Origin: Roseibium aggregatum
GTDB taxonomy: Bacteria > Pseudomonadota > Alphaproteobacteria > Rhizobiales > Stappiaceae
Reading direction: 5' to 3'
Assembly: GCF_017309185.1 (NCBI RefSeq)
Contig: NZ_JAEKJZ010000003.1
Location: forward strand, 62,001 to 126,000
Length of the DNA stretch: 64,000 nt
Shown one piece after another: positions 708 to 58,077 of the stretch; the stretch's first letter is position 1, and each line of letters begins with the position of its first letter. Under the pieces are notes generated by a model that ran no database searches, was not told the DNA's origin, and worked only from the letters and a program-made list of their open reading frames with translations. Both the position numbers and the translations under genes were made by a program.

Positions 708-746
708 GGAAGGCGCTGGCAGAAATGCCGGCGCCTTCCAGTTTTT
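708..746 (+). terminator. Terminator-like hairpin between binding-protein and permease genes
   Basis: Arm GGAAGGCGC at 708-716 pairs perfectly with GCGCCTTCC at 731-739. The inner bases GGC (718-720) and GCC (727-729) extend the stem. It is followed by AGTTTTTT. This is a classic intrinsic terminator shape 17 bases after the binding-protein stop codon and 65 bases before dppB. Because the permease genes lie in the same direction with no gene in between, it more likely gives partial termination or protects the 3' end of the binding-protein mRNA. Confidence 0.8.
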
Positions 747-810
747 TGGCCGGCGGACATTCTTCTTTTGAAAGACGGTTGCCGCCGGTCCTTCGTATCT
801 GGATCCTGAC

Positions 811-1818
811 ATGCTTCGCTTTCTTCTAGGCCGCCTGGGCCTGTTGATCCCGACATTCTTCGGCGTCACGCTGGTCGCCTTCTCCTTCATCCGGCTGCTG
901 CCGGGCGATCCGCTCGATCTTCTGGCCGGCGAACGCGGCGTCACGCCCGAGCGCAAGGCGGAACTGATGGCCCAAATGGGTTTCGACAGGCCGCTCTGGC
1001 AACAGTATCTCGACTATGTCGCCGGCGTTTTTCAGGGCGATCTCGGAACGTCATTTGTGTCGAAAAAACCGGTGCTCGACGAGTTCCTGACGCTCTTTCC
1101 CGCGACCGCGGAACTGGCGCTGTGCGCGATTATTCTTGCCGTCTGTCTCGGTATTCCCGCCGGCATTTTCGCCGCGGTCAAACGCGGCTCCTTCGCCGAT
1201 CAGGCAATCATGGGAACGGCGCTCGTCGGCTATTCCATGCCAATCTTCTGGTGGGGCCTGCTCCTGATCATTCTCTTTTCCGGCATCCTGCAATGGACGC
1301 CGGTCTCGGGCCGTATTTCGCTGCTCTATTTCTTCCCGCAGGTTACCGGGTTCATGCTGATCGACAGTCTCCTGTCCGGCGAAAAGGGCGCGTTTCTATC
1401 CGCTGTCCAGCATCTGATCCTGCCGTCGATCGTGCTGGCGACCATCCCGCTTGCCGTGATTGCCCGTCAGACCCGTTCGGCCATGCTTGAGGTGCTCGGC
1501 GAGGACTATGTCCGCACGGCCCGGGCGAAGGGCCTGCCGCCGCGCCGGGTCATCGGCCTTCACGCCTTGCGCAACGCGCTGATCCCGGTGGTGACGACCA
1601 TCGGCCTGCAGGTCGGCGTGCTGCTTGCCGGGGCGATCCTGACGGAGACCATCTTTTCCTGGCCGGGGATCGGCAAGTGGCTGGTCGACAGCATTTCGCG
1701 CCGGGACTACTTCGTCGTTCAGGGGGGGCTCCTCATGATCGCGGCGATCATCATGCTGGTGAATCTGGTCGTGGACGTGCTCTACGGTCTGATCAACCCG
1801 CGCATCCGCCACAACTGA
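811..1818 (+). CDS. dppB: ABC transporter permease, DppB type
   Basis: 335 residues, normal for DppB/OppB permeases. The N-terminus MLRFLLGRLGLLIPTFFGVT is the usual first membrane helix of this family, followed by PGDP and a periplasmic segment. The binding-protein-dependent transport domain covers the rest. The EAA loop that contacts the ATPases is visible around residues 229-250 (EDYVRTARAKGLPPRRVI). It should form the membrane channel with the DppC-type protein that follows 15 bases later. The operon order, binding protein, two permeases and two ATPases, is typical of peptide importers. Substrate is not determined by sequence inspection. Confidence 0.93.
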   Translation: MLRFLLGRLGLLIPTFFGVTLVAFSFIRLLPGDPLDLLAGERGVTPERKAELMAQMGFDRPLWQQYLDYVAGVFQGDLGTSFVSKKPVLDEFLTLFPATAELALCAIILAVCLGIPAGIFAAVKRGSFADQAIMGTALVGYSMPIFWWGLLLIILFSGILQWTPVSGRISLLYFFPQVTGFMLIDSLLSGEKGAFLSAVQHLILPSIVLATIPLAVIARQTRSAMLEVLGEDYVRTARAKGLPPRRVIGLHALRNALIPVVTTIGLQVGVLLAGAILTETIFSWPGIGKWLVDSISRRDYFVVQGGLLMIAAIIMLVNLVVDVLYGLINPRIRHN

Positions 1819-1833
1819 GCCGGGGACCGGAAA

Positions 1834-2763
1834 ATGACAAACACCTCTCCGGCCGCCAAGGCCGACACGGCGAAACTGGAAGCGGAAAGCCGCAACGCCA
1901 CAAAGGCGCAACTGGCCGAGTTCTGGTATTATTTTTCGCAAAACAAGGGCGCTGTCATCGGACTGGTGGTGTTCGCGCTGCTGGTTCTGATGGCGGTGTT
2001 CGCGCCGCTGATAGCGCCCCATGATCCGGACGTTCAGTACCGCGACAGCTTTCTGGTGCCGCCGGTCTGGGAAGAGGGCGGCAAGGCGGCCTTTCTGCTG
2101 GGTACGGATGCGGTCGGCAGGGACATTCTCTCCCGTCTCATCTACGGCGCGCGCTTTTCCCTGTTCATCGGGGTTGTCGTCGTCACCATCGCGCTTGTGG
2201 GCGGCATCGTCATCGGTCTCGTCGCCGGCTACATGCGCGGCGCGGTCGACACGCTCATCATGCGCGTCATGGACATTGTCCTTGCGTTTCCTTCGCTGCT
2301 CCTCGCTCTGGTGCTGGTCGCCATTCTGGGGCCGGGTCTGATCAACGCGATGATCGCCATCGCCATCGTCCTCCAGCCGCATTTCGTGCGGCTGACCCGC
2401 GCCGCCGTTCTGGCCGAGCGCAGCCGGGACTACGTGGTCGCGGCCAAGGTCGCCGGTGCCGGTCATCTACGGCTGATGTTCAAGACCATCCTGCCCAACT
2501 GCCTGGCGCCGCTGATCGTTCAGGCGACGCTGTCCTTTTCCAACGCCATCCTGGATGCGGCGGCCCTCGGGTTTCTCGGCATGGGCGCGCAACCGCCGAC
2601 GCCGGAATGGGGCACGATGCTGGCGGAAGCGCGCGAGTTCATCCTGCGCGCCTGGTGGGTGGTAACCTTCCCGGGACTTGCCATCCTGATCACCGTGCTT
2701 GCCATCAATCTTGTTGGCGACGGCTTGCGCGATGCGCTCGATCCGAAGCTGAAGAGGAGCTGA
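1834..2763 (+). CDS. dppC: ABC transporter permease, DppC type
   Basis: 309 residues. It has a hydrophilic N-terminal tail of about 40 residues, then a membrane helix and the OppC_N-like segment ending in APHDPDVQYRD, typical of the DppC/OppC subfamily. The phrase LLGTDAVGRDILSRLIYGAR is the diagnostic start of the transport domain. The EAA loop is RDYVVAAKVAGAGHLRLMFK. It pairs with the DppB-type subunit upstream. The next gene starts 4 bases after the stop codon, so the two are probably translated in a coupled way. Confidence 0.93.
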   Translation: MTNTSPAAKADTAKLEAESRNATKAQLAEFWYYFSQNKGAVIGLVVFALLVLMAVFAPLIAPHDPDVQYRDSFLVPPVWEEGGKAAFLLGTDAVGRDILSRLIYGARFSLFIGVVVVTIALVGGIVIGLVAGYMRGAVDTLIMRVMDIVLAFPSLLLALVLVAILGPGLINAMIAIAIVLQPHFVRLTRAAVLAERSRDYVVAAKVAGAGHLRLMFKTILPNCLAPLIVQATLSFSNAILDAAALGFLGMGAQPPTPEWGTMLAEAREFILRAWWVVTFPGLAILITVLAINLVGDGLRDALDPKLKRS

Positions 2764-2767
2764 TGCC

Positions 2768-3604: not shown

Positions 3605-3606
3605 CC

Positions 3607-6286: not shown

Positions 6287-6305
6287 ATTCCCGGCAAGGT
6301 GGTAA

Positions 6306-17611: not shown

Positions 17612-18435
17612 GCGCGCGCGACTGTCTTGAGGTACGCCTGCCGATGTATGACTGGCCGGAGGTTCGTCCGGCGACGGCGAAGCTTGAAAAGGCGCTCGGC
17701 AAGGCGTTGGCCGGTCGACTCGGCCTGGCGCCGGAAAGGCTGAAACCCTGGCCGGTCGGCATGGACCTTGGCGAAGCCTGGACCCGGTCGGACCTGTTGT
17801 TGACGCAGACCTGCGGGTATCCGCTGACCCATGGGCTCAGGGGCAAGGTCCGGCTTGTCGGTGCGCCGCATTACTCGGCGCCGGACTGCGAGGGCGTCAG
17901 TTACCGAAGCCGGATCGTCGTCCGCAAGGACAGTCGTTTCAGAAACCTTGAAGACTTGCGCGGGAGCCGGGCCGTGTTCAACAGCCTCGACAGCCAGTCG
18001 GGCATGAATGCCTTTCGTCATGCAATCGCGCCGTTCGCAGGCGGCAAACCGTTTTTCGGGCGTGTGATGGCAACGGGAAGCCATCGGGCTTCCGCAAGCG
18101 CGGTCGTCGCGGGAGATGCCGATGTGGCCTGCATCGATTGCGTGTGCTGGCAGCTTATTTGTAACGAGGTCCCGGGCCTCGCGGATCATCTCGATGCGAT
18201 TGCCGCAACGGCAGCCGTGCCGGGGCTGCCGTTGATCACGTCCCTGCGGTTTTCCGTGGCGGACGAGGCAGCGATTGCGGAAACGGTCGAAGAGGTGTTT
18301 TCCGCGCCAGAGACGCGGAAAAGCCGCGAGCGCCTTGGCATTCGCGGCTTTTCCAGACTGTTTTTCGAAGACTATGCGGCAATTCCCGCCATGGAAGACG
18401 AAGCCGTGTCCCAAGGCTATCCGGACCTTTTATAG
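17608..18435 (+). CDS. PhnD-like phosphate/phosphonate-binding family protein without signal peptide
   Basis: 275 residues from TTG 17608, which overlaps the desaturase stop as TTGA and has AGAGG upstream; the frame also runs back to ATG 17566. The fold follows PhnD-like proteins: LPMYDWPEVRPAT at the start, DLLLTQTCGYPLTHGL, then YRSRIVVRKDSRFRNLEDLRGSRAVFN, SQSGMNAFRH and DADVACIDCVCWQL. Those are the two-lobed periplasmic-binding motifs of this family. No signal peptide or lipobox is seen at either start, so it may act in the cytoplasm. No phosphonate transporter genes adjoin it. What it binds is unknown; coupling to a desaturase is unusual. Confidence 0.78.
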   Translation: MSARDCLEVRLPMYDWPEVRPATAKLEKALGKALAGRLGLAPERLKPWPVGMDLGEAWTRSDLLLTQTCGYPLTHGLRGKVRLVGAPHYSAPDCEGVSYRSRIVVRKDSRFRNLEDLRGSRAVFNSLDSQSGMNAFRHAIAPFAGGKPFFGRVMATGSHRASASAVVAGDADVACIDCVCWQLICNEVPGLADHLDAIAATAAVPGLPLITSLRFSVADEAAIAETVEEVFSAPETRKSRERLGIRGFSRLFFEDYAAIPAMEDEAVSQGYPDLL

Positions 18436-20424: not shown

Positions 20425-22860
20425 TCACATCCGCATGCGCTCCGCCTTCGGGTCGAACGGCGGCTCGGAGAGGATCGTGGCCTTGCGGCGGTCGCCGAGG
20501 ATTTCGACTTCGAAGGCACCGGCGCTCGTCTCGCCGGCAAACGCCGCCGGAATGTACCCCTGGGCAAGTGATTTGCCGACGAAATGGGCGTAGCCGCCGG
20601 AGGTGATCCAGCCGATCACCTTGCCCTCGTGCCAGACCGGTTCGTCGCCCATGACATCGGCGTCCGCGGCATCGACCGCGAAGCTGACCCTGAGCCGTTT
20701 CGGACCTTCGTCGAATTCCTTTGTTGCGGCTGCCTTGCCGATGAAATCGTCCTTCGACAGTTTCACGAAGCGGCCGAGGTCGGCTTCAAAGGGACCGTAG
20801 ACCGGGCGGAACTCGCGGAACCAGGTGCCGAAGTTCTTTTCAAGGCGCATGGAGAGCAGGGCGCGCATGCCGAAGTTGACGATGCCGAACTCTGCCCCGG
20901 CCTCCATCAGGGCTTCGTAGACCTGGCGCTCGTATTCCGGCGTCATCCAGATCTCGTAGCCGAGGTCGCCGGTGTAAGAGATGCGATTGACCTTGCAGGG
21001 CGCGTTTGCGACGTCCATCTCGCGGAAGTCCATGAAGCGGAAGGCCGCGTTGGAGACATCCTCGCCGGTGACCTTCGCCAGCACGTCGCGGGCCTTCGGG
21101 CCGGCGATGGACAGGCCGACCCAGCCCAGGTTCAGGGCCCGGATCGTGACGGAACCGTCCACCGGCAGATGCTTTTCGAACCAGCGCATGTGATAGACTT
21201 CGGCCTGGGACGAACCGAACATGTAGAATTTCTCGTCTGACGCGCGCGCTATGGTGAAGTCGCCGATCAGCTTGCCGTTGTCGTTGAGCATCGGCGTCAG
21301 GATGATCCGGCCTATCTTCGGCATGGTGTTGGTCATCAGGCGGTCGAGGTAGGATTCCGCACCCGGGCCGACGATTTCGTATTTGGCGAAGTTCGCGATT
21401 TCCGTGATGCCGACGCTTTCGCGCACCGCCCGGCATTCCGCGCCGATGTGCTCGAAGTCGTTGGAGCGGCGGTAGGAGACGATGTCCTTCGCCTCGACGC
21501 CTTCAGGCGCGAACCAGAGCGGTGTTTCCAGGCCCCAACTGTCGCCCATGACGGCGCCTTGCGCCAGCATGCGGTCGTAGAGCGGTGTCGTCTGGTGCGG
21601 CCTTGCTGCGGGCAGTTCCTCGTTCGGAAAGCGGATGCGGAAGCGGCGGCGGTAGTTCTCCTGCACCTTCTTGTTGGTGTATGAGAGCGTCGCCCAGTCG
21701 CCGTAGCGGGCCACGTCCATGCCCCAGATGTCGTAACCCGGGTCGCCGTTGACCATCCAGTTGGCCAGCGTCAGACCAACGCCGCCGCCCTGGCTGAAGC
21801 CGGCCATGACGGCGCAGGCGACCCAGTAGTTCCTGAGCCCCCGGACCGGTCCGACAAGCGGATTGCCGTCGGGGGCGAAGGTGAAGGGGCCGTTGATGAT
21901 CTGCTTGATGCCGGCGTTCTGCAGTGCCGGGAAGTGCTCGAAACCGACCTCCAGTTCCGGCGCGATCCGGTCGATGTCGGGGGCGAGCAGTTCGTGGCCG
22001 AAGTCCCAGGGTGTCTGGCGCGGGCTCCAGGGACGGCAGTTCTGCTCGTAGGTGCCGAGCAGGATGCCCTTGCCTTCCTGGCGGGTGTAGATCTCGCCGC
22101 CGAAATCGAGAACGCCGATCAGTTCCTTGCCGGTCTCCCTGTTGTGTGTGGTGACCTCTTCCATCTCCTCGGTCAGGAGGTACATGTGTTCCATGGCGAG
22201 CAAAGGCAGTTCTAGCCCGACCATGCGGCCGCATTCACGGGCCCAGAGACCGCCGGCGTTGACCACGTGCTCGGCATGGATCGTGCCCTTGTTGGTGATG
22301 ACATCCCAGGTGCCGTCCGGTGTCTGGACCAGCTCCTCGACCTTGGTGTGCCGGTAAACCGTGGCGCCGTTGACGCGGGCGGCCTTGGCGTAGGCATGGG
22401 TGGTGCCGGAAGGGTCGAGATGACCTTCGACGGGATCCCACAGCGCGCCGATGAAGTGCTTCTCCTCCAAGAGCGGGAACATCTTCTTGGCCTCGGAGAC
22501 GGAGATCAGCTCCAGGTCCATGCCGAGATAGCGGCCCTTGGCCTGGGCGAGGCGCAGGAAATCCATGCGTTCGGGCGTGTCGGCCAGCATGACGCCACCG
22601 GTCAGATGCAGCGAGCAGGACTGGCCGGAGATCTCTTCCAGTTCCTTGTAAAGCTCCACCGTATAGGTCTGAAGCTGGGCGACGTTGGGGTCGCCGTTGA
22701 GCGTGTGGAAGCCGCCGGCGGCATGCCAGGACGAGCCGGAGGTCAGTTCGTCGCGTTCCACCAGCACCACATCCTTCCAGCCGAGCTTGGTCAGGTGATA
22801 AAGCACGCTGCAGCCGACGACGCCGCCACCGATGACAACAACCTGGGTATGGGTCTTCAT
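20425..22860 (-). CDS. Dimethylglycine/sarcosine dehydrogenase-like flavoprotein (DAO-FAO-GcvT)
   Basis: 811 residues. The N-terminal DAO domain has VVVIGGGVVGCSVLYHLTKLGW, and SGSSWHAAGGFHTLNGDPN contains the His that carries covalent FAD in dimethylglycine dehydrogenase. A central FAO_M-like segment follows (about 380-430). The C-terminal half (about 430-800) is GcvT-like: FAKYEIVGPGAESYLDRL, ALNLGWVGLSIAGPKARDVL, and ends with the GcvT beta-barrel (SGGYAHFVGKSLAQGYIP). Such enzymes oxidatively demethylate N-methyl amines and pass formaldehyde to tetrahydrofolate. It lies 70 bases downstream of the MttB homologue on the same strand, so both probably work in betaine or methylamine demethylation. 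Confidence 0.93.
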   Translation of the reverse strand: MKTHTQVVVIGGGVVGCSVLYHLTKLGWKDVVLVERDELTSGSSWHAAGGFHTLNGDPNVAQLQTYTVELYKELEEISGQSCSLHLTGGVMLADTPERMDFLRLAQAKGRYLGMDLELISVSEAKKMFPLLEEKHFIGALWDPVEGHLDPSGTTHAYAKAARVNGATVYRHTKVEELVQTPDGTWDVITNKGTIHAEHVVNAGGLWARECGRMVGLELPLLAMEHMYLLTEEMEEVTTHNRETGKELIGVLDFGGEIYTRQEGKGILLGTYEQNCRPWSPRQTPWDFGHELLAPDIDRIAPELEVGFEHFPALQNAGIKQIINGPFTFAPDGNPLVGPVRGLRNYWVACAVMAGFSQGGGVGLTLANWMVNGDPGYDIWGMDVARYGDWATLSYTNKKVQENYRRRFRIRFPNEELPAARPHQTTPLYDRMLAQGAVMGDSWGLETPLWFAPEGVEAKDIVSYRRSNDFEHIGAECRAVRESVGITEIANFAKYEIVGPGAESYLDRLMTNTMPKIGRIILTPMLNDNGKLIGDFTIARASDEKFYMFGSSQAEVYHMRWFEKHLPVDGSVTIRALNLGWVGLSIAGPKARDVLAKVTGEDVSNAAFRFMDFREMDVANAPCKVNRISYTGDLGYEIWMTPEYERQVYEALMEAGAEFGIVNFGMRALLSMRLEKNFGTWFREFRPVYGPFEADLGRFVKLSKDDFIGKAAATKEFDEGPKRLRVSFAVDAADADVMGDEPVWHEGKVIGWITSGGYAHFVGKSLAQGYIPAAFAGETSAGAFEVEILGDRRKATILSEPPFDPKAERMRM

Positions 22861-22929
22861 GAATTTCGCTCCGGAGAGACCCGCTCCTTGATGACGGGTT
22901 CAAAGTTCAAAGTGACTGTGAGTTCACGA

Positions 22930-26948: not shown

Positions 26949-28649
26949 TCAATCCTTCCAGGGTATCGTGCCTGCGGGAACGCGTCCCGCCAGCATGTTC
27001 ATCCCCAGCATGATCACCACCGTCGCCAGCACGACCACGGCGGACATGGCCGCGGCGAGCGTGGTGTAGCCACCGTCCTCGTAGTTGAAGATGGTGGTGC
27101 CGATGGTCTCGTTGCCGGTGGACCATAGCAGCGCGGAGACGGTGATCTCGTTATAGGCGGTCAGAAAGACCAGGATCGCCCCGGAGGCGGCCGAGGGGGC
27201 GGCGAGCGGAGCGAAGATCCTGTTCATGCGGCGGAAGAAGCCGGCGCCCGAAACCCGTGCGGCATCTTCCAGCGACCCGTCCATCTGCAGGAAGGCGGCC
27301 GCGACCGGTTTCAGGCCGACGGCGAGAAACACCGAGGCATAGGCGATCAGGATGATCCAGAGCGTGCCGTAAAGCGAAACATTCACGACGGGCAGCGGCC
27401 GGATGAAGGCCAGGATGAAGGCGATCGACATGACAAGGCCGGGAACCGCGAAGGCGACTTCCGACTGGGTCAGGGCGAGACCCGCGAGGCGCCTTTTGCC
27501 GGCGTGCCTGTGGGTCAGGAAATAGCCAAGGTAAAGGCTGACCACGGCAATGATCGCCGCCGCGATGCCAGCGATCACCGTCGAATTCGCAAAGGCTCTC
27601 AAGGTGACAGTCTGGCGCCACAGCACTTCCTGGAAGTTTTCGAACGTCAGCGTGGCCAGGGAGAGCGGCAGGCCGTAGGTCCTGACCAGGGCAGTGGCGA
27701 GCAGAGAGGCGGCCGGCAGCACCAGAACGAAACCGACGAAAATCCAGACGGCGGCTTCGACCAGGGGACGCTTGGCGCCGAGAGAAATCGCCAGTGGGTC
27801 CTGGGGCAGCCCGATGAGGCTGTTGCGCATGCGCCGCTGCAACAGGCTCTGGACCAGGATCGCGGCGAAGGCGACCAGCGCCAGGATGACGGAAATCACC
27901 GCGACGTTCGGCAGGACATCCGGACCGAAGCTGGCCAGCCTGCGCCAGACCAGAACGGGGAGTGTGGTGTAGCGCGCGGGAATGCCGAGCAGGGCGTTGA
28001 TGCCGAAATTGCCGAGGGCCGCCACGAAGGCCAGGGCGAAGCCGGCAAGAAGCGCGGGAGCCAGCAGCGGCAGGGTGATCCGCCGGAGCATCAGCGCGGC
28101 GCGCGCGCCCGAGATTCGCGCGGCATCGGACAGCTCCCTTGGAAAGGAGCGCAGGGAAGCGCGGACCAGCAGGAACACCAGCGGGCTGTGCTGAAGGGTT
28201 AGGAGCAGGACAAGGCCCTCGCGCGAATACAGCGGGTGGGTCGAGCCGATCTCCGGTGCCAATCCCAGCCAGCGCAGCACCGGGCTGGCGGGACCGAGCG
28301 CCTGGATCCAGGCAATCGCGGTGACATGGGGCGGGATCATCATCGGCAGGAGGATGAGGAAAACGAGCAGTCCCTTGGCGCGAATGTCCGTCAGGCCGAC
28401 GAGCAGGGCCAGCGCCGTGCCGAGCACCGTTGCCACGAGCGCGGACAGGAAGCTGCTTTCGATGGAGTGCCAGAGAGCGCGCTGAACGGACCGGCTTTGA
28501 AACGCCTCCAGGAGCGGGCCGAAATCGAGCCCGGCATCGCTCGTCAGGCCTGTCTTGAACAGGAGCATGAGCGGCAGGCCGCAGATCAGCGTGGCGCCGA
28601 GTACGAGCGCGAGGAGGGTGGTTTTTTCGGAGGTTAATGCTGATCGCAC
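26949..28649 (-). CDS. ABC transporter permease, fused double-domain (FbpB/PhnU-like)
   Basis: 566 residues from GTG 28649. Two complete transport domains are joined in one chain: the first EAA loop is FPRELSDAARISGARAALML, the second is MDGSLEDAARVSGAGFFRRM. About twelve membrane segments are visible. Fused permeases of this length occur in Fe(III) importers and in the putative 2-aminoethylphosphonate importers. The gene lies downstream of the binding-protein gene, separated by a terminator and a REP-like pair. No Shine-Dalgarno sequence is obvious before the GTG, so the start is less certain than the family. Confidence 0.92.
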   Translation of the reverse strand: MRSALTSEKTTLLALVLGATLICGLPLMLLFKTGLTSDAGLDFGPLLEAFQSRSVQRALWHSIESSFLSALVATVLGTALALLVGLTDIRAKGLLVFLILLPMMIPPHVTAIAWIQALGPASPVLRWLGLAPEIGSTHPLYSREGLVLLLTLQHSPLVFLLVRASLRSFPRELSDAARISGARAALMLRRITLPLLAPALLAGFALAFVAALGNFGINALLGIPARYTTLPVLVWRRLASFGPDVLPNVAVISVILALVAFAAILVQSLLQRRMRNSLIGLPQDPLAISLGAKRPLVEAAVWIFVGFVLVLPAASLLATALVRTYGLPLSLATLTFENFQEVLWRQTVTLRAFANSTVIAGIAAAIIAVVSLYLGYFLTHRHAGKRRLAGLALTQSEVAFAVPGLVMSIAFILAFIRPLPVVNVSLYGTLWIILIAYASVFLAVGLKPVAAAFLQMDGSLEDAARVSGAGFFRRMNRIFAPLAAPSAASGAILVFLTAYNEITVSALLWSTGNETIGTTIFNYEDGGYTTLAAAMSAVVVLATVVIMLGMNMLAGRVPAGTIPWKD

Positions 28650-28837: not shown

Positions 28838-28873
28838 CAAAAAAGAAGGCAGCGCGGAGAATGTCCGCGCTGC
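28838..28873 (-). terminator. Intrinsic terminator after the binding-protein gene
   Basis: GCAGCGCGGA (28849-28858) and TCCGCGCTGC (28864-28873) form a perfect 10-base stem around 5 bases. On the minus strand it is followed by CTTCTTTTTT. It lies 18 bases past the stop codon of the binding-protein gene and before the permease gene. Confidence 0.85.
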
Positions 28874-36851: not shown

Positions 36852-37844
36852 ATGAAAAAATTGTTTGTTTCGGTCGCCGCGACCGCTCTGATCGGCATGG
36901 CGTCCAGCGCCATGGCGGAAGACTGCGGTACGATCACAGTTGCGGAAATGAACTGGGCATCCGCCGGAGCGATCGCGCACATCGACAAGATCATTCTGGA
37001 AAACGGCTATGGCTGCACGGTCGAGCTGGTGACAGGCGACACCATGCCTACGTTCACGTCCATGAACGAAAAAGGCGAGCCGGACATGGCGCCCGAGCTG
37101 TGGATCAACGCCATTCGCGAGCCGCTCGACAAGGCTGTCGCGGAAGGCTCGCTGATCATCGGCGGGGAAGTCCTTAACCAGGGCGGTGTCGAAGGCTTCT
37201 GGGTTCCGACCTATATCGCGGAAGCGAACGACATTCACACCATTGCGGACGTCAAGAAGCATCCGGAACTGTTCCCGGGCGCTGAAGACGAAAGCAAGGG
37301 CGCGTTCTTCACCTGCCCGACCGGTTGGAACTGCCGTATCACCACCGGCAATCTGTTCCGTGCCTTCGGTTTCGAAGACGCAGGTTTCGAGCTTGTCGAC
37401 TCCGGGTCCGCGGCCGGCCTCGACGGATCCCTGGCGCGCGCTTACGAGCGGAATGAAGGCTGGCTCGGTTACTATTGGGCGCCGACAGCGATCCTCGGCA
37501 AATACGACATGACCCTGCTCGACTTCGAAGTCGAACACAACAAGGAAGAGTGGGACAAATGCACCTCGATCGAGGACTGCCCGGATCCGAAGCCGAATGC
37601 CTGGTCCAAGTCCGAGGTTTTCACCGTTGTGACCGACGAGTTCTCCGAAAAGGCGGGGCCGACCATGGACTACATCAAGGGCCGGACCTGGGATAACAAC
37701 ACCGTCGGCAAGGTTCTGGCCTGGATGAGCGACAACCAGGCGACCAATGAAGACGGCGCCTACTACTTCCTGGAAAACTACGAGGACGTCTGGACCAAGT
37801 GGGTCTCGCCGGAAGTGGCGGAAAAGGTCAAGGCAGCCCTTTGA
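36852..37844 (+). CDS. proX: Quaternary-amine ABC transporter substrate-binding protein, ProX/OpuAC type
   Basis: 330 residues with signal peptide MKKLFVSVAATALIGMASSAMA. The OpuAC domain has the tryptophan-rich segments that make up the aromatic cage for a trimethylammonium group: VAEMNWASAGAI, APELWINAI, VEGFWVPTYIA and WLGYYWAPTAI. Cys pairs (DCG, GCT, TCPTGWNC, KCTSIEDC) suggest disulfides. The ligand is probably glycine betaine, choline, proline betaine or a related compatible solute. A terminator-like hairpin follows, then the permease and ATPase genes. Confidence 0.92.
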   Translation: MKKLFVSVAATALIGMASSAMAEDCGTITVAEMNWASAGAIAHIDKIILENGYGCTVELVTGDTMPTFTSMNEKGEPDMAPELWINAIREPLDKAVAEGSLIIGGEVLNQGGVEGFWVPTYIAEANDIHTIADVKKHPELFPGAEDESKGAFFTCPTGWNCRITTGNLFRAFGFEDAGFELVDSGSAAGLDGSLARAYERNEGWLGYYWAPTAILGKYDMTLLDFEVEHNKEEWDKCTSIEDCPDPKPNAWSKSEVFTVVTDEFSEKAGPTMDYIKGRTWDNNTVGKVLAWMSDNQATNEDGAYYFLENYEDVWTKWVSPEVAEKVKAAL

Positions 37845-37864
37845 TCCGCTGATGTCAAGAAACG

Positions 37865-37891
37865 GAGCCCGCGTTCAAAACGCGGGCTCTT
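37865..37891 (+). terminator. Terminator-like hairpin after proX
   Basis: GAGCCCGCGTT (37865-37875) pairs perfectly with AACGCGGGCTC (37879-37889) around CAA, then TTC. The U tract is poor, so partial termination or mRNA 3'-end protection is likely. It lies 20 bases after the proX stop and 39 before proW. Confidence 0.7.
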
Positions 37892-37927: not shown

Positions 37928-38812
37928 ATGGACTGGATAGAATTTCCCTCGCTTAGTCGGGGCACCTTGAGGGACATACGCGTCACAATTGACGGCGGCT
38001 TTAGAGAATTTACCCGTACCTACGGCGAGATGCTCGAAAGAGCGACCGAGCCGCTGGAAGATTTTCTCGTTTTCCTCGAACACCTTCTGATCGAATCCCC
38101 CTGGCCTATCGTGCTGGTGGTCCTGGTCGGCATCGTGTTTTTGATGAGCCGCAACGTGAAGATCACTGCGGGCTCATTCGTGGCGCTTGTGTTGATCGGT
38201 GTGTTCGGCATGTGGGAGGACACCATGCGCACCATCGCCATGGTGACCGTGTGCACCATGCTCGCGATCTTCCTCGGAATTCCGATCGGCATTCTGATGG
38301 CGCGCTCCGACAAGTTCCAGAGCATCGTCAATCCGGTCCTCGACCTGATGCAGACCATGCCCGCCTTCGTCTATCTCATCCCGGTGGTGATGATCTTCGG
38401 CCTCGGCAAGGTGCCGGGTCTCATCGCCATCGTCATCTATGCAATTCCACCGATGATCCGCCTGACCAACCTCGGCATCAGGCTTGTCGATCCGGATGTT
38501 CTGGAAGCGGCTGACGCCTTCGGGTCCAGCGCCCGCCAGAAACTGGTGAACGTGCAGCTCCCGCTTGCCTTGCCGACGATCATGGCCGGGATCAACCAGA
38601 CCATCATGATGGCGCTGGCCATGGTTGTCGTTGCCGCGCTGATCGGCGTGAAGGGGCTCGGTCAGCCAGTGCTCAACGCGATCGCCAACCAGTATTTCAC
38701 CATGGGCGTGATGAACGGTCTGGCCATCGTCGCCATCGCGATCATCTTCGACCGGGCAACGCAGGCCTACGGCAAGCGTCTCCAGAAGCATTCGGAGGTG
38801 ATCCATGGCTGA
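37928..38812 (+). CDS. proW: Quaternary-amine ABC transporter permease, ProW type
   Basis: 294 residues. A cytoplasmic/periplasmic N-terminal segment of about 55 residues precedes the membrane core. The core contains MQTMPAFVYLIPVVMIFGLGKVPGLIA, the EAA loop DPDVLEAADAFGSSARQKL, and GLGQPVLNAIANQYFTMG, all standard in ProW/OpuAB proteins. It overlaps the ATPase gene by 8 bases. It forms the channel for the ProX-type receptor. Confidence 0.94.
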   Translation: MDWIEFPSLSRGTLRDIRVTIDGGFREFTRTYGEMLERATEPLEDFLVFLEHLLIESPWPIVLVVLVGIVFLMSRNVKITAGSFVALVLIGVFGMWEDTMRTIAMVTVCTMLAIFLGIPIGILMARSDKFQSIVNPVLDLMQTMPAFVYLIPVVMIFGLGKVPGLIAIVIYAIPPMIRLTNLGIRLVDPDVLEAADAFGSSARQKLVNVQLPLALPTIMAGINQTIMMALAMVVVAALIGVKGLGQPVLNAIANQYFTMGVMNGLAIVAIAIIFDRATQAYGKRLQKHSEVIHG

Positions 38813-39836: not shown

Positions 39837-39857
39837 CCGGTCGGAAACGGCAAAACA

Positions 39858-39885
39858 AAGCCCCGGAGCAATCCGGGGCTTTTTT
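39858..39885 (+). terminator. Intrinsic terminator of the proXWV-type operon
   Basis: AAGCCCCGGA (39858-39867) and TCCGGGGCTT (39872-39881) form a perfect 10-base stem with a GCAA loop, followed by TTTT. Strong rho-independent terminator. Confidence 0.9.
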
Positions 39886-44358: not shown

Positions 44359-45726
44359 ATGAAATCACGTTTGATGGCTTGCACGGCCGGCTTGATGCTG
44401 GGTCTTGCCCTCGGCACGGGCGGCGTGGCTGCGCAGAACCTCACATTCGAACCGGGAACGGGCGAGTTCAACTGGGACAGCTACAACGCCTGGAAGGAAA
44501 GCGCGCCCGATCTGAGCGGCGAGACCGTCACCATCGCGGGGCCGTGGCTGCAGCCGGAAGACGGCTTTTTCCGGAACGTTCTGGCGTATTTCTCCGCGGC
44601 AACCGGCGCGGAGGTGGTCTACACCGGATCAGACTCCTTCGAGCAGCAGATCGTGATCGACGCCGAAGCAGGCGCTGCTCCCAACATTGCCGTCTTTCCG
44701 CAGCCGGGCCTTGCCTCGGACATGGCCTCGCGCGGTCTGCTGACGCCGCTGCCGGAGGGCATGGGAGCATGGGTTGCCGACAACTACGGCGCCGGCGAAA
44801 GCTGGGTCGACCTCGGCACCTACAAGGATGCCGACGGCAAGGACCAGCTCTTCGGTTTCTTCTACAACGTCAACCTCAAGAGCCTCGTCTGGTACATCCC
44901 GGAGAATTTCGAGGATGCCGGGTATGAAGTGCCCTCCACCATGGAAGAGCTGAAGGCGCTGACGGAACAGATTGTCGCCGACGGCGAGACCCCCTGGTGC
45001 ATCGGTCTGGGGTCCGGATCGGCAACCGGCTGGCCCGCGACCGACTGGGTCGAGGATCTGATGCTGCGCACCCAGCCGGCCGACGTCTACGACAAGTGGG
45101 TGTCCAACGAAATCCCGTTCGACGACGAGCGAGTGGTCGCGGCGATCGAGGAATTCGGCTGGTTCGCGCGTGACGACGCGAAAGTGTCGGGCGGGGCCGG
45201 GGCCGTCGCCTCGACGGACTTCCGCGACAGCCCGAAAGGCCTGTTCTCCGTGCCGCAGCAATGCTACCTGCACCGTCAGGCCTCCTTCGTGCCGGCCTTT
45301 TTCCCGGAAGGCGTCGAATTCGGAACGGATGTCGATTTCTTCTATTTCCCGGCCTATGCGGAAAAGGGGCTCGGCAACCCGGTTCTGGGAGGCGGCACGC
45401 TGATGGCGATCACCAAGGCGTCCGACGCGACGTTCGAGCTGATGAAATTCTTCCAGCTACCGATTGCCCACGAGGTGATGATGGCGCAGACCGGCTTCCT
45501 GACGCCGCTCAAGACCGCCAACCCCGCCACCTACAAGGACGACACGCTGCGCGGCCAGGGAGAAATCCTCGTCAATGCAAGCACGTTCCGTTTCGACGGC
45601 TCCGACCTGATGCCGGGCGCCGTGGGGGCGGGCAGCTTCTGGACAGGCATGGTCGATTATGTCGGGGGCAAGGACGCTCATGAAGTGGCCACCGCCATTC
45701 AGAAGAGCTGGGACGCCAACAAGTAA
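44359..45726 (+). CDS. aglE: Alpha-glucoside ABC transporter substrate-binding protein
   Basis: 455 residues; GGGAGGAGCGAC precedes ATG 44359. Signal peptide MKSRLMACTAGLMLGLALGTGGVAAQ. The mature protein belongs to the extracellular solute-binding family 1 and resembles AglE of Sinorhizobium: SGETVTIAGPWLQPEDGFFRNVLAYF, FFYNVNLKSLVWYIPENF, SGSATGWPATDWVEDL and GGGTLMAITKASDATFELMK. Expected ligands are sucrose, maltose, trehalose and other alpha-glucosides. A hairpin follows, then the permease genes. Confidence 0.92.
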   Translation: MKSRLMACTAGLMLGLALGTGGVAAQNLTFEPGTGEFNWDSYNAWKESAPDLSGETVTIAGPWLQPEDGFFRNVLAYFSAATGAEVVYTGSDSFEQQIVIDAEAGAAPNIAVFPQPGLASDMASRGLLTPLPEGMGAWVADNYGAGESWVDLGTYKDADGKDQLFGFFYNVNLKSLVWYIPENFEDAGYEVPSTMEELKALTEQIVADGETPWCIGLGSGSATGWPATDWVEDLMLRTQPADVYDKWVSNEIPFDDERVVAAIEEFGWFARDDAKVSGGAGAVASTDFRDSPKGLFSVPQQCYLHRQASFVPAFFPEGVEFGTDVDFFYFPAYAEKGLGNPVLGGGTLMAITKASDATFELMKFFQLPIAHEVMMAQTGFLTPLKTANPATYKDDTLRGQGEILVNASTFRFDGSDLMPGAVGAGSFWTGMVDYVGGKDAHEVATAIQKSWDANK

Positions 45727-45733
45727 TCAAAAG

Positions 45734-45765
45734 AAGGCCGGTTTCCTTCGGAGGCCGGCCTTTTT
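45734..45765 (+). terminator. Terminator-like hairpin after aglE
   Basis: AAGGCCGG (45734-45741) pairs with CCGGCCTT (45755-45762), and TCC/GGA around TTCG extend the stem inward. TTT follows. It lies 8 bases past the aglE stop and before aglF. Confidence 0.75.
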
Positions 45766-45874: not shown

Positions 45875-47116
45875 ATGTTAACGGACAACCCGGCACTCCT
45901 GGGCCTCGTGACGATTGTCGTGGGCGTGGGCGTTTGCCTCGGGTATTTCTTCCTGTCCAATCTTGTTCTCGATACGGTGATCTTCCCGGCGAGGGGGCCG
46001 AACGCGGGGCGCAACATCAACCGCGCCAACATGGTCCGGCCGTGGCTGTTTCTGTTTCCGGCGGTGTTTTTCCTGGCGCTTTACCTCGCCTACCCGGTCT
46101 TCGAAACCCTGCGGTTGTCTCTGACCGACCGTGACCTCGGCGGTGCCTTCGTCGGCCTTGAAAACTACCGGAAGATGGTCGATGAGGCCAAGTTCTGGGA
46201 AGCGGTGCGCAACAACATGCTCTGGTTGATTGTCGTACCGGGCGCCTCGACCGCCTTCGGGCTTCTCGTTGCCCAGCTGACCGACCGGATCGGTTGGGGC
46301 AATCTCGCCAAGTCGCTGATCTTCATGCCGATGGCGATTTCTTTCGTTGGCGCATCGGTGATCTTCAAGCTGATCTACGATGCGCGGCCGGCGGACCTGA
46401 GCCAGATCGGTGTCTTGAACGCGGTCTGGATGAAATTCGATGGCGGTCCAGGGTCGGTGTTCACTCTGCAGATCGTGCCGACGCTGCTGCTTGCCGGTTT
46501 CGTGGCGCTCCTTGGTTATATCATCTGGACTTTCATCCGGGATCTCACGGCGGGCGGGCGGAACCGTTCGGTCTTGCTGCTTCCGCTCCAGCTCGCGGTT
46601 GCCGCCGGCGGTCTCTGGCTGATCTGGCTGGCGCTGGGCTCCATCGTGAACGTCTGGATCGCGGATCTGCCCTTCGGCGAGCCGCAGACCTGGCTGACGC
46701 TTCCGTTCTGGAACAACTTCTTCCTGATGGTCGTTCTGATCTGGATCCAGACCGGGTTCGCCATGGTGATCCTGTCGGCGGCCTTGCGCGGCATTCCGGA
46801 GGAAACGATTGAGGCGGCGATCGTCGACGGCGCCAATCCGTTCCAGATCTTCTTCAAGATCAAGGTTCCGCAGATCATGGGCACCATCGTTGTGGTCTGG
46901 ACCACGATCACGCTGGTCGTGCTGAAGATCTTCGATATCGTCTTCGCCATGACGAACGGCCAGTGGGAAACCCAGGTTCTGGCCAACTACATGTACGACA
47001 AGCTGTTCGTCACGAGGGATTGGGGCGTGGGGTCCGCGAGCGCCATCGTCATCATGCTGCTAGTGACACCGATCCTGGTCTGGAACGTCTACAACGCCCG
47101 CAAGGAGATGCGCTGA
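45875..47116 (+). CDS. aglF: Alpha-glucoside ABC transporter permease AglF
   Basis: 413 residues from ATG 45875; the frame is open to TTG 45833, but that codon sits only 2 bases after a GGAAG. AglF-type permeases are unusually long because of an insertion between the helices: a first membrane segment (ALLGLVTIVVGVGVCLGYFFL), MALT-like core after WLFLFPAVFFLALYLAYPV, and an extra pair of helices around LLPLQLAVAAGGLWLIWLALG. The EAA loop is ETIEAAIVDGANPFQIFFKI. It overlaps the aglG start by one base (TGATG). Confidence 0.92.
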   Translation: MLTDNPALLGLVTIVVGVGVCLGYFFLSNLVLDTVIFPARGPNAGRNINRANMVRPWLFLFPAVFFLALYLAYPVFETLRLSLTDRDLGGAFVGLENYRKMVDEAKFWEAVRNNMLWLIVVPGASTAFGLLVAQLTDRIGWGNLAKSLIFMPMAISFVGASVIFKLIYDARPADLSQIGVLNAVWMKFDGGPGSVFTLQIVPTLLLAGFVALLGYIIWTFIRDLTAGGRNRSVLLLPLQLAVAAGGLWLIWLALGSIVNVWIADLPFGEPQTWLTLPFWNNFFLMVVLIWIQTGFAMVILSAALRGIPEETIEAAIVDGANPFQIFFKIKVPQIMGTIVVVWTTITLVVLKIFDIVFAMTNGQWETQVLANYMYDKLFVTRDWGVGSASAIVIMLLVTPILVWNVYNARKEMR

Positions 47117-52851: not shown

Positions 52852-54354
52852 TTACTTCGCGTTTACGGCGTGGTTCATGACGTGGAAGATCACGTTCTGC
52901 TCGATGGTGCCATCAACCAGGTGTGCCCACGGGCCTTTGGCATAGATCGCGACGTCCTCACCGGAATGGGTTTCGGAGGATTTCGGGATCAGGGCCTGCT
53001 GGACGTAGTCCAGGTCGGTCGCGGTTTCCTGGTCCACGTCGGGACGGGAACCGGTGTAGTCGTTGGCGCCTTCTTCCTTCTTCAGAACCGAACCGGTGCC
53101 GTTCAGGTAGCCGATGATGGTGTAAGGCTTGCCGTCGTCGGCGGTCACCAGTTCGTCGGAGTGCTTGATGCCCTTCTTGGCAACGTCATAGCACAGGCCG
53201 AGAATGTTGGAGCCGCGGCCGCAGTAGCCGTTGAAGGCGATTGCGTGTTCGTGGTCGGCGGTGACGATGATGAGCGTGTCTTCGTCGTTGGTCAGCTCGT
53301 CGGCCATTTTAACGGCTTCGGCGAAAGCGACACCGTCCGTCAGGGTGCGGGCAGCGTTGCCGTCGTGGTTGGCGTGGTCGACGCGGCCGGCTTCGATTTC
53401 AAGGTAGTAGCCGTCTTCGTTCTTGGAGAGGAACTCGATGGCGGCCTTGGTCATGTCGGCCAGCGACGGCTCGTCGTCATCGGCGCGGTCGGCTTCGTAT
53501 TCCATGTGGCTGTTGTTGAACAGCGCCAGAACCGGAGCGGAGCCGTCGAACTTGACTTCGTTGAAGCCCGCGGTGTCGGTTGCGAACTGGAAGCCCAGGC
53601 CGGTGGCGCGGTCAACCAGGTTGACATTGTCCTCGCGACGGCCCTTCAGGCCGCCCATTTCCATGTCCTTCGGCAGGAAGTAACGTCCGCCGCCACCCAT
53701 GGCGAGGTCGATCGTGCCGGCTTCCATGGCGTCGATGAGCTGGGTCGCGATATCCTTCTGCGCCGTGCAGCCTTCCGGCACGGCGTCTTCCCAGTTGCGG
53801 TTGGCGGTCTTGGCATAGACAGCCGCCGGGGTCGCGTGGGTAATGCGGGCGGTGGAGACGACGCCGACGGACTTGCCGGCTTCGGTCATCAGTTCGGAGA
53901 ACAGGGCCAGCTCGTTGCCTTCGACGGTGGAGCAGTCGCCATGGATTGCGTCTTCGCCAAGGTTGATCAGGTTGAAGCGCTGCTTCACACCGGTGTTCAT
54001 GGAACCCGCCGTCGGAGCGGAATCCGGGGTCTGGGCGTTGATGTTATAAGTCTTGACCAGTGCGCTGTAGAAGTCCGGGGTCTCGTAAGGCAGAACGTTT
54101 TCCTCGCCCATCATGCCTTTCTGCTGACCGTCGAAAAGGCGCGTGGCATAGTTCGTGCCGACACCGTTGCCATCGGCGACGAGCAGGATCACGTTCTTGG
54201 CGCGGTTGGTGTTCGGCTGGCGGTCGAGAATTGCCTGAATGGCAGCTTCGCCATCCTTGAACCACTGGCTCGAGGCTTGCGGCAGTGTGTCCTGAGCGAA
54301 GGCGGCAGAGCCGGTGAGGGCCAGCGCCAGCGTAGAGCTAACGATCGTTTTCAT
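52852..54354 (-). CDS. phoA: Alkaline phosphatase, PhoA type
   Basis: 500 residues with signal peptide MKTIVSSTLALALTGSAAFA. Asp61 (ILLVADGNGVG) and the nucleophile Ser112 (DSAPTAGSMNTG) fit the family. Zinc ligands appear in GRVDHANHDGN, TADHEHAIAF and SETHSGEDVAIYA. It hydrolyses phosphate monoesters in the periplasm to release phosphate. Cys pairs (DCST, GCTA, YCG, LCY) may form disulfides. A PHO-box-like repeat lies about 53 bases upstream, so induction by PhoB under phosphate starvation is likely. The ugp-type operon stands back to back with it. Confidence 0.95.
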   Translation of the reverse strand: MKTIVSSTLALALTGSAAFAQDTLPQASSQWFKDGEAAIQAILDRQPNTNRAKNVILLVADGNGVGTNYATRLFDGQQKGMMGEENVLPYETPDFYSALVKTYNINAQTPDSAPTAGSMNTGVKQRFNLINLGEDAIHGDCSTVEGNELALFSELMTEAGKSVGVVSTARITHATPAAVYAKTANRNWEDAVPEGCTAQKDIATQLIDAMEAGTIDLAMGGGGRYFLPKDMEMGGLKGRREDNVNLVDRATGLGFQFATDTAGFNEVKFDGSAPVLALFNNSHMEYEADRADDDEPSLADMTKAAIEFLSKNEDGYYLEIEAGRVDHANHDGNAARTLTDGVAFAEAVKMADELTNDEDTLIIVTADHEHAIAFNGYCGRGSNILGLCYDVAKKGIKHSDELVTADDGKPYTIIGYLNGTGSVLKKEEGANDYTGSRPDVDQETATDLDYVQQALIPKSSETHSGEDVAIYAKGPWAHLVDGTIEQNVIFHVMNHAVNAK

Positions 54355-54406
54355 AACATCTCCGAGTGGTAACGGGGAAAACCCGCCCGTTTCTTAGAAA
54401 CGCCAT

Positions 54407-54668: not shown

Positions 54669-54686
54669 CTGTCATACGCCTTTCAT
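54669..54686 (+). promoter_or_regulatory. PHO-box-like repeat upstream of the deoR-ugp operon
   Basis: CTGTCAT (54669-54675), ACGC, CTTTCAT (54680-54686): direct heptamers with 11-base periodicity, the first perfect and the second with one change. It overlaps the left TTCATATGAA palindrome, so PhoB and the DeoR-type protein could compete there. Confidence 0.6.
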
Positions 54687-54713
54687 ATGAACGTCTGATA
54701 ATTTTCATATGAA
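54682..54713 (+). promoter_or_regulatory. Twin TTCATATGAA palindromes, probable DeoR-family operators
   Basis: TTCATATGAA occurs at 54682-54691 and 54704-54713; the right copy extends to the perfect 14-base palindrome TTTTCATATGAAAA (54702-54715). The centres are 22 bases apart, two helical turns, so two dimers would bind the same face of the DNA. They lie about 100 bases before the deoR-type gene. Confidence 0.6.
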
Positions 54714-54809
54714 AATGATTGTGTGGCTTTCAAGTCAGGCTCGTCTGGTTGGCCTCTGACTTGAGCACGTTCTATTGGGAGGCCGGCGGAGGCCGGAACT
54801 GACCGCAAA

Positions 54810-56677: not shown

Positions 56678-56743
56678 CGAACTGCGCGCGCCGCGCAGAC
56701 CAACCGCAGTAATGCGGACGTTCAAACCTTAGGAAGTAAGCTC

Positions 56744-58027
56744 ATGTTGAAGTCCACTTTCCTGAAAGCCGTTGCTGCGACGGCTCTTTCTTTCAGCACC
56801 TGGGCCTCCGCTCAGGCTGTCGATCTGCAATTCTATTTTCCGGTCGCTGTCGGCGGCAAGGCCGCTGAAACGATCCAGGCCCTGACCGACGAATATGTCG
56901 CCAACCATCCGGACGTCAAAATCGACGCCGTTTACGCCGGTTCCTATCAGGACACGGTCGCCAAGGCGATCACCGCGTCCCGCGGCGGCAACCCGCCGCA
57001 GCTGTCCGTGATCCTGTCGACCGACATGTTCACCCTGATCGATGAAGACCTGATCGAGCCTTTCGACAGCTACCTCTCCACCGAGGAAGACAAGAAATGG
57101 CTCGCCGGCTTCTACCCGGCCTTCATGGAAAACAGCCAGACCGGCGGCAAGACCTACGGCATTCCGTTCCAGCGTTCCACACCGGTTCTCTACTGGAACA
57201 AGGAAGCCTTCGAAAAAGCCGGCCTCGACCCGGATACCGCTCCGGCGACCTGGGACGAGATGGTTGAATTCGGCAAGAAACTGACCGTCAAGGATGACAG
57301 CGGCAACGTCACCCAGTGGGGCGTGCGCATCCCGTCTTCCGGCTTCCCCTACTGGCTGTTCCAGGGCCTGGCCATCGAAAACGGCGCCATCCTGGCCAAT
57401 GCCGAGGGCAACAAGACCAACTTTGACGATCCGAAAGTTGTCGAAGCTCTGCAGTACCTCGTCGACCTGAGCGTCAAGGACAAGGTCATGGCTCCGGGCA
57501 TCATCGAATGGGGCTCCACGCCGAAAGCCTTCTTCGAAGGTCAGACGGCCATGATGTGGACCTCCACCGGCAACCTGACCAACGTGCGCGACAACGCTCC
57601 GTTCAAGTTCGGCGTCGCCATGCTGCCGGAAAAAGCGCAGCGCGGCGCTCCGACCGGCGGCGGCAACTTCTACCTGTTCAAGGGCGCTTCCGCGGAACAG
57701 AACAAGGCGGCCGTCGAATTCGTCCAGTGGATCACCGCTCCGGAACAGTCCGCGAAATGGACCATGGCAACCGGTTACGTCGCACCGCGTCCGGAAACCT
57801 GGGACACTGAAACCATGAAGGCTTATGCCGCGGACTTCCCGGCGGTCCTTGTGGCCCGCGACCAGCTCGAATTCGCCAAGGCCGAGCTGTCCACCTATCA
57901 GAACCAGCGCGTCACCGGCATCTTCAACGATGCCCTGGCCGCCGCCATCACCGGCTCCAAGGATCCGGCAACGGCGCTGAAGGAAGCTCAGGCACAGGCC
58001 GACGGGATCCTGGCCGAGTACCGCTAA
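56744..58027 (+). CDS. ugpB: ABC transporter substrate-binding protein, UgpB-like
   Basis: 427 residues with a signal peptide ending STWASAQAV; AGGAAG precedes ATG 56744. The mature N-terminus LQFYFPVAVGGKAAETIQALTDEY and DAVYAGSYQDTVAKAITA are close to the start of UgpB, the receptor for sn-glycerol 3-phosphate and glycerophosphodiesters. IPFQRSTPVLYWNKEAFEKAGLDP and GGGNFYLFKGASAEQNKAAVEF are also typical. Codon use is unusually uniform and C-rich, as in highly expressed genes. The PHO-box-like site upstream of the operon supports a phosphorylated ligand. Confidence 0.85.
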   Translation: MLKSTFLKAVAATALSFSTWASAQAVDLQFYFPVAVGGKAAETIQALTDEYVANHPDVKIDAVYAGSYQDTVAKAITASRGGNPPQLSVILSTDMFTLIDEDLIEPFDSYLSTEEDKKWLAGFYPAFMENSQTGGKTYGIPFQRSTPVLYWNKEAFEKAGLDPDTAPATWDEMVEFGKKLTVKDDSGNVTQWGVRIPSSGFPYWLFQGLAIENGAILANAEGNKTNFDDPKVVEALQYLVDLSVKDKVMAPGIIEWGSTPKAFFEGQTAMMWTSTGNLTNVRDNAPFKFGVAMLPEKAQRGAPTGGGNFYLFKGASAEQNKAAVEFVQWITAPEQSAKWTMATGYVAPRPETWDTETMKAYAADFPAVLVARDQLEFAKAELSTYQNQRVTGIFNDALAAAITGSKDPATALKEAQAQADGILAEYR

Positions 58028-58039
58028 GGCACATCTTTT

Positions 58040-58077
58040 CCGGGGCGCGGGGTTTCTGCCCGCGCCCCGGTCTGTTT
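58040..58077 (+). terminator. Terminator-like hairpin after ugpB
   Basis: CCGGGGCGCGGG (58040-58051) pairs perfectly over 12 bases with CCCGCGCCCCGG (58059-58070), loop of 7, then TCTGTTTT. It begins 13 bases after the ugpB stop and precedes the permease genes. Confidence 0.85.

What the first reader, a model, noticed from the sequence alone, without database searches (positions are those of the whole stretch)
708..58077. Every importer operon has a terminator-like hairpin directly after the binding-protein gene
Five independent ABC operons show the same layout: dpp-type (708-746), Fe/AEP-type (28838-28873), proXWV-type (37865-37891), agl (45734-45765), ugp-type (58040-58077). In each, a perfect or near-perfect GC-rich stem begins 8-20 bases after the binding-protein stop codon and lies before the permease gene. 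Partial termination or 3'-end protection after the receptor gene is known for some operons such as malE-malF. Five of five in one window suggests a general design rule in this lineage for making receptor in excess. Stem sequences differ, so the hairpins are convergent in shape, not copies.
Basis: partly seen in the sequence, partly recalled or inferred. Interest (0 to 1): 0.7.

Follow-up and report, generated by a model that had tools for sequence, protein, structure and literature searches.

The report
Receptor-gene hairpins in importer operons
In this alphaproteobacterium most genes for nutrient-capturing receptor proteins are followed at once by a strong RNA hairpin that probably lets the cell make more receptor than pump, an arrangement already shown in Clostridia and E. 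coli but seen here on a genome scale and also in a second, unrelated transporter class.

Summary
In detail: all five hairpins exist, each starting 4-19 nt after a binding-protein stop codon (-19 to -30 kcal/mol). In the window's own genome a hairpin follows 55 of 72 binding-protein-to-translocator junctions with a gap of at least 30 nt (55 of 86 counting every gap), against 41 of 283 other same-strand junctions and 27 of 150 convergent gene ends (odds ratio 19). It also follows TRAP receptor genes (15 of 19 DctP-DctQ gaps). It recurs, mostly with other stem sequences, at 106 of 119 dppA-dppB gaps of relatives; dppB-dppC shows 0 of 130, but only 5 of those have room. The stems are not copies of a repeat. 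About half have a T-rich tail and about a third have almost none, so partial termination and 3'-end protection may both contribute; neither was measured. The principle is published: Wu 2022 for Clostridia, Dar and Sorek 2018 for five E. coli importers. New here are the lineage, the scale and the TRAP extension. 'Every importer operon' holds only inside the window, for the two permease families searched.

The parts
1..691 (+). 3' part of dpp-type binding-protein gene (SBP_bac_5); gene starts about 913 nt before the window
   Evidence: (PF00496, 2.2e-102)
708..739 (+). hairpin after dppA-like gene, 14 bp, -29.1 kcal/mol, followed by AGTTTTTT
   Evidence: hairpin present in 106 of 119 dppA-dppB gaps of at least 30 nt, this one included
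811..1818 (+). dpp-type permease gene, first translocator gene
   Evidence: PF00528
28891..29871 (-). Fe/AEP-type binding-protein gene (SBP_bac_11/1/8/6)
28849..28873 (-). hairpin after the Fe/AEP-type gene, 10 bp, -19.4, followed by CTTCTTTTTT
   Evidence: least often kept of the five, 5 of 12
26949..28649 (-). fused two-domain permease of the Fe/AEP-type system
36852..37844 (+). proX-type binding-protein gene (OpuAC), here first in the operon
   Evidence: PF04069, 8.2e-61
37864..37890 (+). hairpin after proX-type gene, 12 bp, -21.5, weak T tract
   Evidence: 12 of 17 related junctions
37928..38812 (+). proW-type permease gene
39857..39882 (+). hairpin with T run at the end of the pro operon, after the ATPase gene (contrast to the internal hairpin)
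44395..45726 (+). agl-type binding-protein gene (SBP_bac_1)
45731..45765 (+). hairpin after agl-type gene, G-C core plus A-U/G-U extension into a T run, -24.9
   Evidence: 9 of 14 related junctions
45875..47116 (+). agl-type permease gene
56744..58027 (+). ugp-type binding-protein gene (SBP_bac_8/1)
58040..58070 (+). hairpin after ugp-type gene, 12 bp, -30.0, followed by TCTGTTTT
   Evidence: 16 of 23 related junctions
58125..59003 (+). ugp-type permease gene

Best explanation
Each hairpin is a receptor-gene 3' element that sets the receptor to translocator ratio inside one operon. The promoter upstream of the receptor gene makes one transcript. Some polymerases stop at hairpins with a T-rich tail; transcripts that read on are cut and eaten back from the 3' side, and the hairpin, which mostly starts about 7-25 nt after the stop codon, shields the receptor part. 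Either route leaves more receptor mRNA than permease/ATPase mRNA. Shown here from sequence: position, strength, association with receptor genes of two unrelated transporter classes, rarity after other genes with equal gaps, retention of shape while the sequence changes. Inferred: shared transcript, termination, protection and receptor excess.
For: Hairpin (dG <=-15, starting <=40 nt after stop, within the gap): binding protein -> permease/ATPase 55 of 72 (gap >=30) vs 41 of 283 other same-strand junctions, 27 of 150 convergent ends, 3 of 16 translocator -> binding protein, 1 of 40 other -> binding protein. The excess holds at all six thresholds from -10 to -22 and in all four gap-length strata. 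Binding protein followed on the same strand by no recognised permease or ATPase gene: 11 of 15 (4 of the 15 are followed by another receptor gene and one by an ATPase gene my rule missed). TRAP: DctP -> DctQ 15 of 19 with gap >=30 in this genome; 9 of 14 DctP genes not before a recognised DctQ, next gene ignored; 12 of 20 DctP-DctQ gaps in other families. Relatives: dppA-dppB 106 of 119, 93 distinct hairpin sequences; pro 12 of 17, agl 9 of 14, ugp 16 of 23, own genome left out. In 16 distinct Rhizobium-type dpp stems all 12 pairs are kept and 3 of them change on both sides. Hairpin end to next start: median 53 nt, which leaves little room for a separate promoter, so read-through is likely needed (inference). 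Published: such stem-loops terminate 20.7-96.1% in R. cellulolyticum (passage), and malE is protected in E. coli (passage).
Against: No transcript data for this organism. The Fe/AEP-type hairpin is not consistently kept (5 of 12). 31 of 86 junctions in this genome lack it. Outside the class 6 of 21 dppA-dppB gaps lack it, inside and in named loci 7 of 98. Hairpins also follow non-receptor genes, e.g. alkaline phosphatase in the window, and those have T-rich tails about as often (20 of 44 vs 22 of 46 with T>=4, first classes), so the tail is not special to receptors. The relative weight of termination and protection cannot be told from sequence.
Confidence: 0.82

Rival explanations
1. Pure partial intrinsic terminators: the hairpins act only by stopping polymerase, as in the Clostridia study.
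For: 27 of 55 have 4 or more T in the 8 nt after the trimmed stem, 20 have 5 or more; T frequency 0.35-0.57 at positions 1-8 after the stem against about 0.1-0.3 at positions 9-16. Four of the five window hairpins have T-rich tails.
Against: 20 of 55 have at most 2 T in 8; only 4 of 15 TRAP-receptor hairpins have 4 or more T in the 8 nt after the untrimmed stem; in the Clostridia study a stem without a U tract did not terminate (passage).
Confidence: 0.35
2. Pure 3'-end protectors: all polymerases read through; the hairpin only blocks 3'-5' exonucleases after cleavage downstream (malE-malF model).
For: The T-poor third of the hairpins; the method finds malE-malF, hisJ-hisQ and others in E. coli, 11 of 16; five E. 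coli importers are decay-regulated in favour of the binding protein (passage).
Against: T-enrichment after the stem would be unexplained. No A+T excess between hairpin and next start (0.44 vs 0.44 in other gaps), so no sign of an added AU-rich cleavage site.
Confidence: 0.3
3. Chance or composition: GC-rich intergenic DNA in a 61% GC genome folds anyway.
For: Other same-strand gaps show hairpins in 41 of 283.
Against: Dinucleotide shuffles give 2.3 of 64; all gap-length strata keep the excess, e.g. 26 of 31 vs 18 of 70 at 60-100 nt.
Confidence: 0.01
4. A dispersed palindromic repeat (REP-like) that happens to settle after receptor genes.
For: In E. coli several hairpins at these junctions share GCCGGATGCGGC-like stems (recognised as REP from recall).
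Against: No cross-match at E <=1e-3 among the 55 hairpins, and two weak non-self matches (16 and 20 nt) in 1.26 Mb. The other 4.9 Mb were not examined.
Confidence: 0.02
5. The hairpin is mainly the 3' end of a small regulatory RNA cut from the receptor mRNA.
For: E. coli has annotated sRNAs at receptor 3' ends: SroC at gltI-gltJ and RbsZ at rbsB.
Against: Rfam has no match in the window at its gathering scores. Conserved pairing sequences next to the stems were not looked for.
Confidence: 0.1

Closest known systems
Internal terminators after binding-protein genes in cellulolytic Clostridia (Wu 2022, PMC9045158; abstract and passages seen)
   Same: Stem-loop just after a first-placed binding-protein gene, long GC-rich stem, weak U tract, wide gap there and tight permease/ATPase spacing; 87.3% of gaps over 50 bp in 5' clusters
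   Different: Clostridia; ABC importers; measured by Northern blot and reporter. Here Alphaproteobacteria, sequence only, and TRAP receptors too
malE-malF and other differentially decaying E. coli importer operons (Dar and Sorek 2018, PMC5927463; passages seen)
   Same: Stable hairpin at the 3' boundary of the stabilised gene; in five ABC systems this gene is the binding protein, whatever its position
   Different: Five importers in E. coli; the abstract says the protective structures are generally coded within coding regions, here they lie in the gap; several E. coli gap hairpins look like REP copies (REP recalled), none of the 55 here match each other
Rhodobacter capsulatus puf intercistronic hairpin
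   Same: An alphaproteobacterial intercistronic hairpin tied to segmental mRNA stability (seen as a cited title and passages in PMC6238624; details recalled)
   Different: Photosynthesis operon, not an importer

Membership tests
Internal partial terminators after binding-protein genes (Wu 2022) | stem-loop in the gap between binding-protein and translocator genes | tested here: met
   5 of 5 in the window; 55 of 72 with gap >=30, 55 of 86 in all
Internal partial terminators after binding-protein genes (Wu 2022) | U-rich tract, lower in U than canonical terminators | tested here: inconclusive
   27 of 55 have T>=4 in 8, 20 of 55 have T<=2; not special to receptors
Internal partial terminators after binding-protein genes (Wu 2022) | measured premature termination with read-through | not testable with these tools
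   no transcript data
malE-malF type 3' protective hairpin | stable hairpin directly after the stabilised gene | tested here: met
   median -22.8 kcal/mol, 11 bp among 55; median offset 13.5 nt among 46 with the first gene classes
malE-malF type 3' protective hairpin | longer half-life of the upstream segment | not testable with these tools
   no decay data
REP / BIME repeat | many similar copies in the genome | tested here: not met
   0 cross-matches among 55 hairpins; two weak non-self matches in 1.26 of 6.12 Mb
Rfam RNA family | match at gathering score | tested here: not met
   0 matches in the window; only the window was scanned

The most novel reading that the evidence does not exclude
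A receptor-wide rule: in Alphaproteobacteria any secreted substrate receptor, whether ABC or TRAP, acquires its own unrelated 3' hairpin by repeated independent invention, wherever the gene sits in the operon, so that receptor excess is a selected trait written in RNA rather than in promoters or ribosome sites.
Probability: 0.45. Interest if true: 0.55.

Novelty: new member of a known kind. Interest (0 to 1): 0.42.

Why it matters
It turns a per-operon observation into a genome-scale, testable rule: a hairpin after a gene hints that its product is a transport receptor made in excess. It could help find receptors among unknown genes, and the many unrelated natural hairpins make a graded set for tuning expression ratios in Alphaproteobacteria. 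The TRAP result, if it holds in RNA data, says that the selected trait is receptor excess and not something about ABC transporters.

Tried and rejected
Chance and composition, repeats and a known RNA family were tested and rejected as far as the calls reach. A first set of receptor genes based on a signal-peptide rule contained false members; Pfam on 30 doubtful or representative proteins showed 20 receptors and 10 others, and the classes were redone. Of 112 genes finally called receptors, 26 were checked directly by Pfam (5, 20); the others rest on BLAST or profile similarity to groups with a checked member. The comparison set still holds missed receptors (for instance the TRAP receptor at C8:76747, among the hairpin genes), which makes the contrast conservative. 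misread the strand of minus-strand loci and was replaced. Tripartite tricarboxylate receptors: 4 genes, 2 with a hairpin of -15 or better within 40 nt, too few, and 2 of the 4 have no near same-strand gene by my crude search. In one search, 2 of 18 distinct sequences (L166, L294) were chance matches of the search string and were dropped for the recount. The 119 dppA-dppB gaps include the window's own locus, close relatives of one another, and 4 gaps over 700 nt where another gene may lie between (3 of these 4 with the hairpin); 6 of 130 loci had no usable dppA upstream. Some agl and ugp loci are the same place. In one search gaps behind unclassified upstream genes had hairpins in 3 of 20 (1 of 4, 1 of 6, 0 of 1, 0 of 5, 1 of 4). 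E. coli controls were picked by hand: 39 entries typed, 4 dropped as placeholders or under 30 nt, 9 of 35 with a hairpin; E. coli receptors before a non-translocator gene 1 of 3. A search for an alignment-based wider set failed. No paper on such hairpins in alphaproteobacterial importers or after TRAP receptor genes turned up in ten searches of the held open-access library; these asked for several words at once and only four papers were opened, so the absence is weak.
Full report
What was checked. The window lies at C3:62001-126000 of a 6.12 Mb, 15-contig genome. By the named relatives of its dpp permease the organism is near Roseibium and Stappia (inference, the genome itself is unnamed). All five hairpins are present, and all five upstream genes are solute-binding proteins by Pfam. 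Permease hits of the two families searched (PF00528, PF02653) fall in exactly five operons inside the window. Inside the window 5 of 33 other gene ends with a gap of at least 30 nt have a comparable hairpin, 4 of 16 for same-strand pairs with a gap under 350.

Genome-wide test. I fetched 97 stretches around the 133 PF00528 and 58 PF02653 hits, the window covering those inside it, called genes with a home-made hexamer model (1122 genes in 1.26 Mb), and scored for each gene end the best single hairpin within the gap. With refined classes a hairpin of -15 kcal/mol or better starting within 40 nt of the stop follows 55 of 72 receptor-to-permease/ATPase junctions with a gap of 30 nt or more (55 of 86 without a gap limit). 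The figure is 41 of 283 for other same-strand junctions, 27 of 150 for convergent ends, 3 of 16 for translocator-to-receptor and 1 of 40 for other-to-receptor junctions. Permease-permease junctions have a median gap of -1 nt, and only 2 of 146 junctions between permease and ATPase genes of any order have a stem of 8 bp within 30 nt, against 54 of 86 for receptors; this is mostly lack of space, so the gap-matched strata matter: 4 of 6 vs 1 of 70 (30-60 nt), 26 of 31 vs 18 of 70 (60-100), 11 of 15 vs 11 of 56 (100-160), 14 of 20 vs 11 of 87 (160-350). Shuffling the receptor gaps gives 2.3 +- 1.6 of 64 where 46 were seen with the first classes; the other same-strand gaps also exceed their shuffles, 44 of 235 against 4.3, so real hairpins occur elsewhere too, only less often.

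It tends to follow the receptor, not the position. Receptor genes followed on the same strand by no recognised translocator gene have the hairpin in 11 of 15 cases; 4 of these 15 precede another receptor gene, one precedes an ATPase gene missed by my rule, and one has a 561-nt gap. TRAP transporters are unrelated to ABC importers except for the use of a secreted receptor (established knowledge). The genome has 38 DctP receptor genes. Of 24 that directly precede a DctQ gene, 19 have a gap of 30 nt or more and 15 of these have the hairpin (17 if the offset limit is lifted); of the 14 others 9 have it, the next gene being ignored. Among 29 related DctP loci of other families, 20 have a DctQ gap of 30 nt or more and 12 of these have the hairpin; 5 of 7 without a scored DctQ start have it, and 2 have no room. 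Four tricarboxylate-type receptors are too few to judge, 2 of 4.

Relatives. At 119 dppA-dppB gaps of 30 nt or more, the own locus included, the hairpin is present in 106 (111 at any offset); dppB-dppC has 0 of 130, but only 5 of those gaps reach 30 nt. By kinship labels it is 15 of 21 outside the class and 91 of 98 for the rest. The 106 hits hold 93 distinct hairpin sequences; neighbouring genera share stems, distant ones do not visibly. For the other window operons, with the upstream gene classified by profile and the own genome left out, the counts are pro 12 of 17, agl 9 of 14, ugp 16 of 23, and only 5 of 12 for the Fe/AEP type, the weakest of the five. In 16 distinct Rhizobium-type dpp stems (22 loci) all 12 pairs are kept; pairs 8, 10 and 12 change on both sides and pair 9 on one. 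The 55 hairpins of this genome do not match one another, so they are not a repeat family as far as the 1.26 Mb goes.

E. coli comparison. In regions of MG1655 chosen from recall, 26 receptor-to-translocator junctions were read from the tables; 10 have gaps under 30 nt, and 11 of the other 16 have the hairpin, including malE, hisJ, ugpB, pstS and araF; dppA, xylF, phnD, ytfQ and gltI miss the limits. The hand-picked comparison set has 9 of 35, and receptors before a non-translocator gene 1 of 3.

Mechanism. After trimming outer A-U and G-U pairs, 27 of 55 hairpins have at least 4 T in the next 8 nt and 20 have at most 2. Tails behind other genes' hairpins are about as T-rich (20 of 44 against 22 of 46, first classes), so a T tail is not special to receptors. 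The window shows both sorts: a T run after the dpp, Fe/AEP, agl and ugp stems and a weak one after proX, whereas the end of the same pro operon has a hairpin running into six T (39857-39882). The space from hairpin to next start is short, median 53 nt, so downstream genes probably depend on read-through (inference). This points to partial terminators for the T-rich half and exonuclease barriers for the T-poor third; a single hairpin may do both. No transcript evidence was available.

What is known. Wu 2022 (abstract and passages) describes this for eight cellulolytic Clostridia: 387 importer clusters, stem-loops in 87.3% of gaps over 50 bp behind 5' receptor genes, termination efficiencies 20.7-96.1% in one species. 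Dar and Sorek 2018 (passages) report that in five E. coli ABC systems the stabilised gene is always the substrate-binding subunit, whatever its position. So the principle is established. New here, as far as the ten searches named under Tried and rejected can tell, are the alphaproteobacterial scale and the TRAP extension; the sequence turnover under a kept shape and the contrast with repeat-like hairpins of E. coli are added observations.

Verdict.

Noticed in passing
window 25723-26772 (+) and 26949-28649 (-): The ATPase gene next to the Fe/AEP-type receptor and permease genes, likely their partner, lies on the opposite strand, tail to tail with the permease gene, so this importer may be split over two convergent transcripts.
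   Followed up: partly
window 750-788 (+): The dpp gap holds a second inverted repeat (CCGGCGG ... CCGCCGG, wide loop) behind the main hairpin; the same arms form the main hairpin in Rhizobium relatives. May be chance.
   Followed up: no
window 52852-54354 (-): Alkaline phosphatase gene, also followed by a strong hairpin (-25.8) before a same-strand gene; hairpins may mark other abundant exported proteins.
   Followed up: no
window 17644-18435 (+): Phosphonate-binding-type protein (PF12974 matched from profile position 84) with no PF00528/PF02653 permease beside it and no strong hairpin within 40 nt.
   Followed up: no
window 20425-24507 (-): Adjacent FAD oxidoreductase/GcvT-type and MttB-family methyltransferase genes, suggesting methylated-amine use.
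   Followed up: no
L429 4682-4844; L426 32046-32279 (E. coli): Annotated sRNAs SroC and RbsZ sit at receptor-gene 3' ends, so receptor hairpins may also give rise to small RNAs.
   Followed up: no
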